Below are positions 25,369 through 28,977 of a stretch of 64,000 nucleotides of DNA, in pieces. Each line of letters starts with the position of its first letter. Positions within the stretch are counted from its first letter, which is position 1. The notes beneath the pieces are model-generated. The model saw nothing but the letters and a program-made list of their open reading frames with translations, did not search any database and had not been told where the DNA came from. The stretch is from Capillimicrobium parvum (GTDB lineage: Bacteria; Actinomycetota; Thermoleophilia; Solirubrobacterales; Solirubrobacteraceae). The position numbers and the translations under genes are program-made. The stretch is taken from the NCBI RefSeq assembly GCF_021172045.1, contig NZ_CP087164.1, forward strand, positions 1,488,001 to 1,552,000, read 5' to 3'.

Positions 25369-25848
25369 ATGGCCAAGGGCGGCAAGAAGAAGGCGGCGCC
25401 GGGCGACGTCGCGAGCAACCGGCAGGCGAGCTTCCGGTTCGAGTTCCTCGACAAGGTCGAGGCGGGGATGGTGCTGCTCGGCACCGAGGTCAAGGCCCTG
25501 CGCACGACGGGCGCCCAGCTGAAGGACGGCTACGCCGCGATCCACGACGGCGAGCTGTGGCTGCACAACGTCCACATCCCGCCGTACGCGCCGGCCTCGC
25601 GCGACAACCACGATCCCGAGCGCGCGCGCAAGCTGCTCGTCAGCCGGCGTGAGCTCGACCGGCTCGGCGGGCGCATCCAGGAAAAGGGCCTGACGCTCGT
25701 GCCGACGCGGGTGTACTTCCGCGGCCCGTTCGCGAAGGTGGAGATCGCGCTCGCGCGCGGCAAGGACCGCTTCGACAAGCGAGAGTCGATCCGCGAGCGC
25801 GAGACGAAGCGCGACATGCAGCGCGCATTGCGCGAAGCCAACCGCTGA
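25369..25848 (+). CDS. smpB: SsrA-binding protein SmpB
   Basis: A 159-residue SmpB, which binds tmRNA and mimics an anticodon arm in the A site during rescue of stalled ribosomes. FEAG-type core residues (FEFLDKVEAGMVLLGTEVKALR), HIPPYAPAS and the basic C-terminal tail that enters the mRNA channel (KRESIRERETKRDMQRAL) are all present. The tmRNA gene is 2.8 kb downstream, with a transporter gene between. Confidence 0.97.
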   Translation: MAKGGKKKAAPGDVASNRQASFRFEFLDKVEAGMVLLGTEVKALRTTGAQLKDGYAAIHDGELWLHNVHIPPYAPASRDNHDPERARKLLVSRRELDRLGGRIQEKGLTLVPTRVYFRGPFAKVEIALARGKDRFDKRESIRERETKRDMQRALREANR

Positions 25849-25881
25849 ACCGCCCATTCTGCGGTAAATGCGATATCGCAC

Positions 25882-25911
25882 TTGACGCGGGGTCGTTCGG
25901 GGGCGTACCTT
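25882..25911 (+). promoter_or_regulatory. Sigma70-type promoter upstream of a candidate RNA
   Basis: TTGACG (25882-25887) and TACCTT (25906-25911) are 18 bases apart. This is the best -35/-10 pair in the window. Transcription would start near 25918, over 200 bases before the next ORF. Confidence 0.65.
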
Positions 25912-25917
25912 CTCCGC

Positions 25918-26046
25918 AGACGCGGATACCGAGCCGCGACAAGAGCGAGGCCACCGGGATGGAAGGCCGCGCCACCTGAGCCGGGCGCCGTCCGACAGGG
26001 CGATTGCGACAGGCGGAAGGTTCCCAGACACGGCTCGGGTCCGCGT
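25918..26046 (+). ncRNA. Candidate structured RNA or 5' leader
   Basis: The predicted transcript begins with CGCGGATACCGAGCC (25921-25935), which pairs with GGCTCGGGTCCGCG (26033-26046): two helical blocks of six and seven base pairs separated by a small internal loop. About 97 bases are enclosed, with smaller local stems such as CGCC/GGCG. A long closing helix just after a strong promoter suggests a riboswitch-like leader of the MMPL gene or a free-standing sRNA. I compared it by eye with cobalamin, TPP, ydaO, ykkC, SAM/SAH, c-di-GMP, Moco and SRP RNAs and found no match. The rest of the 283-base gap (26047-26131) holds no clear feature. Confidence 0.45.
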
Positions 26047-26131
26047 CCCTTTCGTTGCCCGGGGTAGCCGCCGTACGGTTGATGACAAACCGTCGATTGG
26101 CGCAACGCGATGTGATAGGCATAGCGCCCGC

Positions 26132-28570
26132 ATGACGCGACCCCTCTACTGGCTGGGGGGCTTCTGCGGGAGGCGCCACTGGATCGTGCTCGCGATCTGG
26201 GCCGTCATCCTCGCCGGCATCGTCTTCTGGGCGCAGTCGGCGGGTCAGGAGCTCAACAACGACCTGACGCTCCCGGGCACCGGCAGCCAGTCCGCCACGG
26301 ACCTGCTCACGAAGCGGTTCCCGGCCCAGGCGAACGGGACGAACCCGGTCGTGCTCGTCGCGCCCGACGGCAAGAAGCTCACGGGGAGCAAGTTCAAGGA
26401 CCCGATCGACAACACGGTCAAGACGCTGCGCGACGACTCGATCGTGCGCAGCGCTACCGATCCACTGTCGGTCTCGTCGCAGCTGTCGAAGGACGACACG
26501 ATCGGCTACATCTCGCTGAACCTGAAGGTGGGCGCCGGCGAGCTCACCGAGGATCAGGCGGCGACGCTCCGCGACGAGACCAAACAGGCCAGCGACGCCG
26601 GCCTGGCGGTGTCGTTCGGCGGCTACGTCGGCGACGAGCTCTCCAAGCCGGCGGTCGAGTCCAGCGAGGTCGTCGGCATGGCGATGGCGATCATCGTGCT
26701 GCTGTTCACGTTCGGCACGGTCGTCGCGATGGGCATGCCGATCATCACGGCGATCATCGGCCTCGGGGCCGGCATATCGATCATCACGCTGCTCGGGCAC
26801 GTCGTCGAGGTGCCCACCGTCGCCCCGACGCTGGCGACGATGATCGGTCTCGGGGTCGGCATCGACTACGCGCTGTTCATCGTCACCCGATACCGCGAGC
26901 ACCTGCACGGCGGGATGGGAGCCGACGAGTCCATCGCCCGATCGGTGGCCAGCTCCGGCGGCGCGGTGGTGTTCGCCGGCAGCACGGTGATCGTCGCGCT
27001 CGTGTCGCTGGCGGTCGTGCGGATCCCGCTCGTCAGCACGCTCGGGTACACGGCGGCGATCATGGTCGCGGTCGCGGTGTTGGCGGCGATCACACTGCTG
27101 CCGGCGCTGCTGGGCGTGATCGGGCGCCACATCGACAGTCTGCGCATGCCGTGGGCACACAAGCTCAAGGGCGACGCCAAACCGCACGGATGGATGGCGT
27201 GGGGCCGCTTCGTCGCCCACCGGCCGATTCCGTCGGCGCTCGTCGCGCTCGTCGTGCTCGGTGTCCTCGCGGCGCCGATCCTCGACCTGTACCTCGGTCA
27301 GCAGGACGACGGCTCGCTGCCGAAGGAGATGACCGCGCGCCAGTCCTTCGATGCGCTGTCGAAGGGCTTCGGGCCAGGGGCCAACGGGCCGTTCCTCATC
27401 AGCGTCGACATGTCGAAGAAGCCGGCGAAGGCCGACCAGGACCAGATCGACCAGATCAACCAGCAGGAGAAGCAGCAGAAGCAGAAGGCGCAGGATCAGG
27501 CCGACCAGCAGGAGCAGCAGCTCGAGGCCCAGGGGCTGCCGCCCGATCAGGCGCAGGCCCAGGTCCAGCCGCAGCTCAACAAGCAGCTCGACCAGATCTC
27601 CCAGCAGGCCGACGACCAGAAGCAGCAGGCCGAGAACCCGGCGACCGATCCTCGCCTGCAGACGCTGCGCGACGACCTCAAGAAGACCGACGGCGTGCAC
27701 TCGGTCACGCAGCCGGACGTCAACAACAAGGGCACCGCGGCGGTCATGTCGCTGCAGCCGACGACCGCGCCGGCCGACCAATCGACCGCCGACCTCGTCA
27801 CGACGCTGCGCGACGACGTCATCCCGAAGGCCGACAAGGGCGCCGACATGAAGACGTACGTCGGCGGCACGACGGCGGGCTACGTCGACCTCGCCGCCGA
27901 GATCTCCTCGCGGCTCGTCCTGACGATCGTGGTGGTCATCGCGCTGAGCTTCCTGCTGCTGATGCTCGCGTTCCGCTCGATCGTCATCCCGGCGACCGCA
28001 GGGATCATGAACCTGCTCTCGATCGGCGCCGCGTTCGGCGTCGTGACCGCGGTGTTCGAGAAGGGCTGGGGGGCGTCCCTGGTCGGGCTCGATGGGCCCG
28101 TGGCGATCGTCAGCTATGTGCCGCTGATGATGTTCGCCGTGCTGTTCGGGCTCTCGATGGACTACGAGGTGTTCCTCATGAGCCACGTCCGCGAGGCGTG
28201 GCAGCGCACGCGCGACAACCGTACGGCGGTCATCGAGGGCATCGGCACGACGGGCCGCGTGATCACGTCGGCCGCGCTGATCATGGTGAGCGTCTTCTTC
28301 GCCTTCATCCTCAACGGCGACCCGACCGTCAAGCAGTTCGGGGTCGGCATGGGCGTGGCGGTGGCGGTCGACGCGACGCTCGTGCGCTGCCTGCTCGTGC
28401 CCGCGGTGATGGTGCTGCTCGGGCGCGCCAACTGGTGGTTCCCGAGGTGGCTGGACCGGATCATGCCCAACTTCTCGATCGAGGGCGAGGAGTGGTTTCG
28501 CAAGCGCGACGAGGAGGCCGCGGCGGCGGCGGAGCGCCGGCGGCCGGATCCCGTCCCGGCCGGCGACTGA
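26132..28570 (+). CDS. MMPL/RND family transporter
   Basis: An 812-residue RND-superfamily membrane protein of the MMPL (mycobacterial membrane protein large) type, expected to export lipids or hydrophobic compounds with proton motive force. TM1 is at about 16-36; two sets of about five TM segments are near 175-370 and 590-790. GIDYALFIVTRYREHL and its second-half counterpart SMDYEVFLMSHVREAW are the paired proton-relay motifs. Residues about 430-505, in the second external domain, form an unusual Gln/Asp-rich helical stretch. The C-tail is basic. It lies between smpB and tmRNA; a promoter and candidate RNA precede it. Confidence 0.9.
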   Translation: MTRPLYWLGGFCGRRHWIVLAIWAVILAGIVFWAQSAGQELNNDLTLPGTGSQSATDLLTKRFPAQANGTNPVVLVAPDGKKLTGSKFKDPIDNTVKTLRDDSIVRSATDPLSVSSQLSKDDTIGYISLNLKVGAGELTEDQAATLRDETKQASDAGLAVSFGGYVGDELSKPAVESSEVVGMAMAIIVLLFTFGTVVAMGMPIITAIIGLGAGISIITLLGHVVEVPTVAPTLATMIGLGVGIDYALFIVTRYREHLHGGMGADESIARSVASSGGAVVFAGSTVIVALVSLAVVRIPLVSTLGYTAAIMVAVAVLAAITLLPALLGVIGRHIDSLRMPWAHKLKGDAKPHGWMAWGRFVAHRPIPSALVALVVLGVLAAPILDLYLGQQDDGSLPKEMTARQSFDALSKGFGPGANGPFLISVDMSKKPAKADQDQIDQINQQEKQQKQKAQDQADQQEQQLEAQGLPPDQAQAQVQPQLNKQLDQISQQADDQKQQAENPATDPRLQTLRDDLKKTDGVHSVTQPDVNNKGTAAVMSLQPTTAPADQSTADLVTTLRDDVIPKADKGADMKTYVGGTTAGYVDLAAEISSRLVLTIVVVIALSFLLLMLAFRSIVIPATAGIMNLLSIGAAFGVVTAVFEKGWGASLVGLDGPVAIVSYVPLMMFAVLFGLSMDYEVFLMSHVREAWQRTRDNRTAVIEGIGTTGRVITSAALIMVSVFFAFILNGDPTVKQFGVGMGVAVAVDATLVRCLLVPAVMVLLGRANWWFPRWLDRIMPNFSIEGEEWFRKRDEEAAAAAERRRPDPVPAGD

Positions 28571-28584
28571 TGCCCTCGCCGCGC

Positions 28585-28590
28585 TAGACT
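28585..28590 (+). promoter_or_regulatory. ssrA: -10 box (TAGACT) for tmRNA
   Basis: TAGACT lies 20 bases before the mature tmRNA 5' end, fitting a short precursor leader removed by RNase P. Confidence 0.45.
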
Positions 28591-28610
28591 CGGAACCACA
28601 AGCATCACAC

Positions 28611-28975
28611 GGGGACGACAGGCTTCGACGCGGTCGGTTTCGTTGTGATGGTTGCGAGCCGAGGTCCCGGAGGCCTCGTAAAACACCGGGAAACCAATAC
28701 GTGCGGACTCTCACGAGTACGCCCTCGCCGCTTAGTCACTAGCTAAGCGTGGTGAGGTCTGGCCCCCAGCCTGCCTGCCGCTGGGCTCGCCGGATCAGAT
28801 ATGCAGGCTTCACCCCCGGCGGTCCGCCTCCGCCAAAGGGGGGACATCTTCAGGAGGCTGGCTCCCTGGAACCCCGCCGGCGAGGCGACCAGGGAGCGAG
28901 ATCAGAGCGCCGGATACGCTCGTAGAAGCCATCATCGCGCGATTGCGGACGTGGGTTCGATTCCCACCGTCTCCA
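28611..28975 (+). ncRNA. ssrA: Transfer-messenger RNA
   Basis: A one-piece tmRNA of about 365 bases. The 5' end GGGGACGACAGGCTTCGAC is diagnostic; GGGGACG pairs with CGTCTCC at the 3' end to form the acceptor stem, with one G-U pair. GGTTCGATTCC is the T-loop. The 3' CCA is not encoded (the DNA reads A then CTG). The tag reading frame starts at 28703 and encodes ADSHEYALAA followed by TAG at 28733-28735. The tag resembles the mycobacterial ADSHQRDYALAA and ends in the degradation signal ALAA. Confidence 0.96.
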
Positions 28976-28977
28976 CT

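What the first reader, a model, noticed from the sequence alone, without database searches (positions are those of the whole stretch)
25882..26046. Promoter plus long closing helix: candidate new structured RNA between smpB and an MMPL gene
A well-spaced -35/-10 pair is followed within 10 bases by a sequence whose ends pair over 13 positions in two helical blocks across 126 bases. No ORF explains it, and no common riboswitch class fits by eye. It may be a leader controlling the transporter or a small RNA.
Basis: partly seen in the sequence, partly recalled or inferred. Interest (0 to 1): 0.65.

Follow-up and report, generated by a model that had tools for sequence, protein, structure and literature searches.

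The report
New small RNA family near tmRNA
The stretch next to smpB is very probably a gene for a roughly 130-letter folded RNA, belonging to a previously unlisted family that so far appears only in one order of actinobacteria, often right beside the tmRNA (ribosome-rescue RNA) gene; what it does is not yet known.

Summary
Window 25919-26047 is one member of an RNA family; I worked with 81 sites. The family has a 7-bp closing helix (P1), a second helix (P2), a hairpin (P3) whose loop forms a pseudoknot with the strand before P2', and a P4/P5 arm of variable length.

Covariation supports the fold: 97% of cells are paired and 13 pairs show two-sided changes. The pseudoknot forms in 58 of 58 native loop/strand combinations, against about 37 when partners are swapped. 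A -35/-10 promoter ends 6-9 nt before P1 in 66 of 80 upstream regions (0.2 expected), and a CUUU-GUU-like tail follows P1'. Nothing in Rfam 15 matches.

The conserved neighbours are smpB (upstream) and ssrA/tmRNA (downstream). ssrA has its own -10 element, and some copies are in tandem or beside unrelated genes. So this is a stand-alone small RNA gene, found only in two families of the window's order (Solirubrobacterales, judged from two named contigs).

Function is unproven. The invariant bases sit in the structured core, which favours a protein-binding, trans-acting RNA over an antisense RNA. No expression data were available.

The parts
25882..25887 (+). -35 element TTGACG
   Evidence: A TTGnnn -35 lies at the same place before P1 in relatives; 66 of 80 upstream regions carry the promoter
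25906..25911 (+). -10 element TACCTT; transcription start expected near 25918
   Evidence: TAnnnT ends 6-9 nt before P1 in 66 of 80 upstream regions, 0.21 expected by shuffling, 0 of 397 control stretches
25919..26047 (+). structured small RNA, P1 to P1' (129 nt)
   Evidence: Covariance-model hits; covariation
25919..25925 (+). P1 5' strand GACGCGG
   Evidence: 99.6% of cells paired in 73 distinct sequences, 2 pairs with two-sided changes
26041..26047 (+). P1 3' strand CCGCGTC
   Evidence: as above
25929..25936 (+). P2 5' strand CCGAGCCG
   Evidence: All six P2 pairs in the model have two-sided changes
26031..26038 (+). P2 3' strand CGGCTCGG
   Evidence: as above
25937..25944 (+). J2/3, with the conserved AAGA before GCGA
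   Evidence: AAGAGCGA is near-invariant in relatives
25945..25972 (+). P3 hairpin: GCG-A-GGCC / GGCC-G-CGC
   Evidence: GGCC/GGCC, AGCC/GGCT, GATC/GATC and GACC/GGTC variants
25956..25959 (+). pseudoknot 5' strand GGGA in the P3 loop
   Evidence: 58 of 58 distinct native loop/strand combinations pair, mean 37 and maximum 47 when swapped
25960..25964 (+). UGGAA, matching the common UGNRA after the pseudoknot strand (T-loop-like; inference)
   Evidence: loop sequences
25974..25977 (+). P4 5' strand ACCT
   Evidence: two of three modelled P4 pairs show two-sided changes, 97% of cells paired
25978..26017 (+). P5 arm, variable in length and sequence
   Evidence: alignment; local fold
26018..26021 (+). 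P4 3' strand AGGT
26022..26025 (+). pseudoknot 3' strand TCCC
26048..26056 (+). U-rich tail CCTTTCGTT, probable end of the transcript
   Evidence: T at tail position +5 in 93% of members; T at +3, +4, +8 and +9 enriched; termination itself not shown
25369..25848 (+). smpB, conserved upstream neighbour
   Evidence: PF01668; upstream on the same strand in 36 other loci
28611..28976 (+). ssrA (tmRNA), conserved downstream neighbour; here beyond the MMPL gene
   Evidence: ARAGORN and RF00023; synteny

Best explanation
This is a stand-alone gene for a small structured RNA of about 125-140 nt. A vegetative-type promoter (25882-25911) starts transcription at about 25918, so P1 seals the 5' end, and P1/P2 plus a short U-rich tail seal the 3' end. 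The RNA folds into P1-P2, a P3 hairpin whose loop pairs with the strand before P2' (pseudoknot), and a variable P4/P5 arm. Shown by comparison: the fold, the promoter position, the tail, the strand, several copies in some genomes, the smpB/ssrA location. Inferred: that it is transcribed, and that it acts in trans by presenting the invariant P3/loop/J2-3 core to a protein partner, as 6S or SRP RNA do, rather than by antisense pairing. My estimates: about 0.85 that it is a stand-alone structured small RNA, about 0.4 for the protein-binding mechanism.
For: Homologues found with a covariance model in 69 of 232 genomes of the order. Covariation: 13 of 23 pairs with two-sided changes against 5.2 in shuffles, covariation score 0.186 against 0.086; sliding the partners by one to three columns drops paired cells from 97% to 35-42%. 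Pseudoknot 58/58 against a mean of 37 swapped. Promoter 66/80 against 0.21 expected and 0/397 controls. Conserved tail. Tandem copies, with promoter-like elements of their own: two in L086, three in L110, two in L128. Downstream genes vary and are often opposite. ssrA has its own -10. Not coding: lengths 104-191 nt in all three phases and no frame open in all members. Plus strand favoured: G-U 46 against A-C 25, 19 of these at one P2 pair. Invariant bases sit in the folded core.
Against: No expression data exist here. The U-tract is weak for an intrinsic terminator. No protein partner is identified and no conserved protein gene accompanies all copies. Most genomes of the class lack it, so it is not a universal housekeeping RNA.
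Confidence: 0.7

Rival explanations
1. A trans-acting antisense small RNA that regulates mRNAs by base pairing, with an unpaired conserved stretch (AAAGAG in J2/3 or UGNRA in the P3 loop) as seed.
For: Stand-alone gene with its own promoter and tail; J2/3 is near-invariant.
Against: The most conserved letters lie in helices, the pseudoknot and short joints; the pseudoknot masks the purine-rich loop. Targets were not searched for across genomes.
Confidence: 0.2
2. A 6S-like RNA that binds RNA polymerase.
For: Stand-alone, vegetative-type promoter, sealed ends; Rfam's 6S model finds nothing in this genome, so the role could be open.
Against: 6S RNA is a long helix with a central bubble (established knowledge); this RNA has a multi-way junction and pseudoknot. 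No 6S match in Rfam scans. Patchy distribution within the class.
Confidence: 0.12
3. A leader co-transcribed with ssrA and released when RNase P trims pre-tmRNA.
For: ssrA lies downstream on the same strand in 46 of 81 copies, 20 of them within 200 nt and as close as 32 nt; never found on the opposite strand.
Against: ssrA has a TAnAnT-like -10 close to its mature 5' end whether or not the RNA is near. The other 35 copies show no ssrA downstream in the fetched stretch (some are cut by contig ends), and in the window 2.5 kb with a whole gene lies between. No co-evolving pairing with tmRNA.
Confidence: 0.08
4. A leader or riboswitch that controls the MMPL transporter.
For: In the window the MMPL start codon lies 85 nt beyond P1', on the same strand.
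Against: No homologue of this MMPL protein in any other locus with a copy; tandem copies; opposite-strand downstream genes in many loci.
Confidence: 0.03
5. A DNA-level repeat or mobile element with no RNA function.
For: Several copies in some genomes.
Against: G-U-compatible covariation, pseudoknot and promoter conservation; copies tend to group by genomic position in a tree; none in phage, plasmid or viral collections.
Confidence: 0.02

Closest known systems
tmRNA (RF00023)
   Same: Frequent genomic neighbour; pseudoknots and paired ends
   Different: No tRNA-like ends, no tag frame; no Rfam match; separate promoter; pairing with tmRNA does not co-evolve
6S RNA (RF00013) and the mycobacterial Ms1 RNA
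   Same: Stand-alone small RNA, vegetative-type promoter, helix joining both ends
   Different: Compact pseudoknotted junction instead of a long bubbled helix; no 6S match in this genome. Ms1 compared from general knowledge only
Bacterial Y RNA (YrlA)
   Same: Ends joined by a helix, extra copies possible
   Different: The partner Ro60/TROVE is absent from the own genome and nearly all carriers; no Rfam match
Bacterial SRP RNA (RF00169)
   Same: Similar size, protein-scaffold type
   Different: A separate SRP RNA gene exists elsewhere in this genome
Orphan structured bacterial RNAs found by comparative genomics (such as the sets in PMC2864571 and PMC6429828; seen as search results, not read through)
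   Same: Family defined by covariation, function unknown
   Different: No match among the 4227 Rfam 15 families

Membership tests
Any Rfam 15 family | Covariance-model match at the RNA | tested here: not met
   No match at gathering threshold, none over the RNA up to E 10 in the window, none at the RNA in 18 loci of relatives up to E 5
6S RNA | Match to RF00013 | tested here: not met
6S RNA | Binds RNA polymerase and templates product RNAs | not testable with these tools
   needs biochemistry
Y RNA | Ro60/TROVE protein encoded in the genome | tested here: not met
   PF05731 in 7 of 146 family genomes, not in the own genome
SRP RNA | Is the genome's RF00169 locus | tested here: not met
   SRP RNA lies at 935021-935120 of the genome, far from the window
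Riboswitch or leader RNA | Conserved downstream gene class in cis on the same strand | tested here: not met
Stand-alone small RNA | Own promoter at the 5' end of the structure | tested here: met
   66 of 80 upstream regions; by sequence conservation, not by experiment
Stand-alone small RNA | Own 3' end | tested here: inconclusive
   Conserved but weak U-rich tail
Stand-alone small RNA | Detected transcript | not testable with these tools
   No RNA-seq available

The most novel reading that the evidence does not exclude
A new class of pseudoknotted regulatory RNA in one actinobacterial order, placed beside ssrA because it works with trans-translation or ribosome rescue, or with a global partner such as RNA polymerase, through a protein-RNA complex not yet described.
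Probability: 0.2. Interest if true: 0.85.

Novelty: new variant of a known kind. Interest (0 to 1): 0.62.

Why it matters
It is a well-supported RNA family absent from Rfam 15, in a lineage for which my library searches surfaced no small-RNA study. A structure model, a covariance-model alignment, a predicted start site and a conserved location beside ssrA make it directly testable. If its link to ssrA/smpB is functional, it would point to an RNA partner of ribosome rescue; if not, it is still a new conserved structured RNA with a probable protein partner to find. The rating 'new variant of a known kind' means: a new RNA family, of the known general kind of stand-alone structured bacterial small RNA.

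Tried and rejected
MMPL leader. Protein-coding reading: no frame open in all members, lengths in all phases. Y RNA, SRP, 6S by model. Shared leader with ssrA. Base pairing with tmRNA: native -116.5 against swapped -116.2 kcal/mol, no signal. GACGCGG in tmRNA: 31 of 44 carriers against 14 of 28 without the RNA nearby, not specific. Mobile or phage origin. The literature searches listed no paper on this RNA; most subscription papers are not held. Genomes without hits may hold divergent members: over 40 genomes the search uses strict filters. A filter-free search beside ssrA in 29 loci confirmed one member already known (L171, G173) and added no convincing new one.

Full report
WHAT IS THERE. The intergenic stretch 25849-26131 lies between smpB (25369-25848, PF01668) and an MMPL gene (26132-28570, PF03176). 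It holds TTGACG-18-TACCTT and then, seven bases later, a sequence whose ends pair: P1 25919-25925/26041-26047 and P2 25929-25936/26031-26038. Folding the single sequence gives a z-score of only -2.3. The case therefore rests on relatives.

A FAMILY OF RNAs. Blastn with the intergenic region against 101 related genomes gave matches that begin at or near the predicted start, at roughly 70-87% identity among the strong ones, with several copies in some genomes. An alignment and a covariance model (R1) found members in 60 of 146 genomes of the family. A second model (R2) found 69 of 232 genomes of the order. I worked with 81 sites: 73 from the R1 search of fetched loci plus the window, and 8 further members of a second family, f2. 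A 27-29-base core pattern hit 30 of 399 genomes of the class, every one in families f1 or f2 of the same order, with none for the reversed control pattern. In 336 genomes sampled across the phylum it hit only two, both family f1. Two members lie in named contigs of Solirubrobacterales MAGs, which is the only name evidence for the order. None was seen in viral, phage or plasmid collections.

STRUCTURE. On 73 distinct sequences, 97.3% of cells in the modelled helices pair, 13 of 23 pairs show two-sided changes (5.2 in shuffles), and the covariation score is 0.186 against 0.086. Sliding the partners by one to three columns leaves 35-42% paired. That alignment was fitted to the structure, so part of the excess is expected; the independent MAFFT alignment of 11 sequences points the same way. 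The P3 loop and the strand before P2' form a pseudoknot that was not part of the model, so this test does not depend on it: 58 of 58 distinct native loop/strand combinations share at least 4 Watson-Crick pairs in a row, against a mean of 37 and a maximum of 47 over 1000 swaps. The variants include GAGG/CCTC, GGGA/TCCC, GGGG/CCCC, GAGA/TCTC and CGAG/CTCG. I first noticed the pseudoknot by eye in a subset of the same sequences, so the permutation test, not the first sighting, is the evidence. One member carries an insertion of about 60 nt in this loop and still reads GACGG/CCGTC (L131).

TRANSCRIPTION UNIT. A TTGnnn-N16-18-TAnnnT promoter ends 6-9 nt before P1 in 66 of 80 non-redundant upstream regions (0.21 expected after shuffling, 0 of 397 control stretches), although the spacers diverge. 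After P1' a tail like CUUUcGUU is conserved, with T at position +5 in 93%. Both place the RNA on the plus strand, as do G-U pairs (46 against 25 A-C, 19 of which are at a single P2 pair). Lengths of 104-191 nt in all three phases and interrupted frames argue against coding.

LOCATION. A frequent order is rnr - smpB - (opposite-strand peptidase genes) - RNA - ssrA. smpB lies upstream on the same strand in 36 other loci. ssrA lies downstream on the same strand in 46 of 81 copies, 20 of them within 200 nt, and was never seen on the opposite strand. ssrA has a -10-like TAnAnT close to its 5' end with or without the RNA, so the two read as separate units. Other copies sit in tandem (L086, L110, L128) or beside unrelated genes such as a response-regulator/kinase pair. 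A rough tree tends to group copies by position, so extra copies look old rather than recently mobile. The window's MMPL protein has no homologue near any other copy.

WHAT IT PROBABLY DOES. The RNA is best read as a stand-alone small RNA gene. Riboswitch or leader roles are contradicted by the varied and opposite-strand downstream genes. SRP, Y RNA and 6S membership were tested and not met. The invariant letters lie in P3, its loop (UGNRA after the pseudoknot, T-loop-like by inference), J2/3 and P1, which suggests recognition of shape by a protein rather than antisense pairing; this step is inference. The location beside ssrA suggests, but does not show, a link with trans-translation, and a direct pairing with tmRNA found no support.

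LIMITS. There are no expression data. Genome searches over many genomes used strict filters, so absence is not proven. The set of loci is biased to well-scoring members. Gene calls in the fetched loci are my own simple ORF selection, not a gene finder. The 35 copies without ssrA include some cut by contig ends. The 3' end is the weakest structural claim.

Noticed in passing
L122, L124, L127 (tmRNA genes): tmRNA tag peptides there are unusually long and different (ADTNPALVADEAHEYALV, ANDRTAVATSHDFQLIA, ADSNPALVADEAHEYALV) compared with ADSHEYALAA in most others.
   Followed up: no
window 28536-28610 and the same place in other loci: ssrA carries a conserved TAGACT/TACACT-like -10 without an evident -35, whether or not the small RNA is near.
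   Followed up: partly
L131:6061-6251: A member with an insertion of about 60 nt inside the P3 loop that looks hairpin-rich, with the pseudoknot kept by different bases.
   Followed up: partly
L086, L110, L128: Tandem runs of two or three copies, most with promoter-like elements of their own and diverged spacers.
   Followed up: partly
A4 columns 15/271 (P2): One P2 pair is A-C in 19 sequences but A-U or G-C in others, a possible conserved A-C wobble.
   Followed up: no
L133, L134, L146, L147, L150: In the second family (f2) several copies sit apart from ssrA, convergent with a HAD-like hydrolase gene (gene named by eye).
   Followed up: partly
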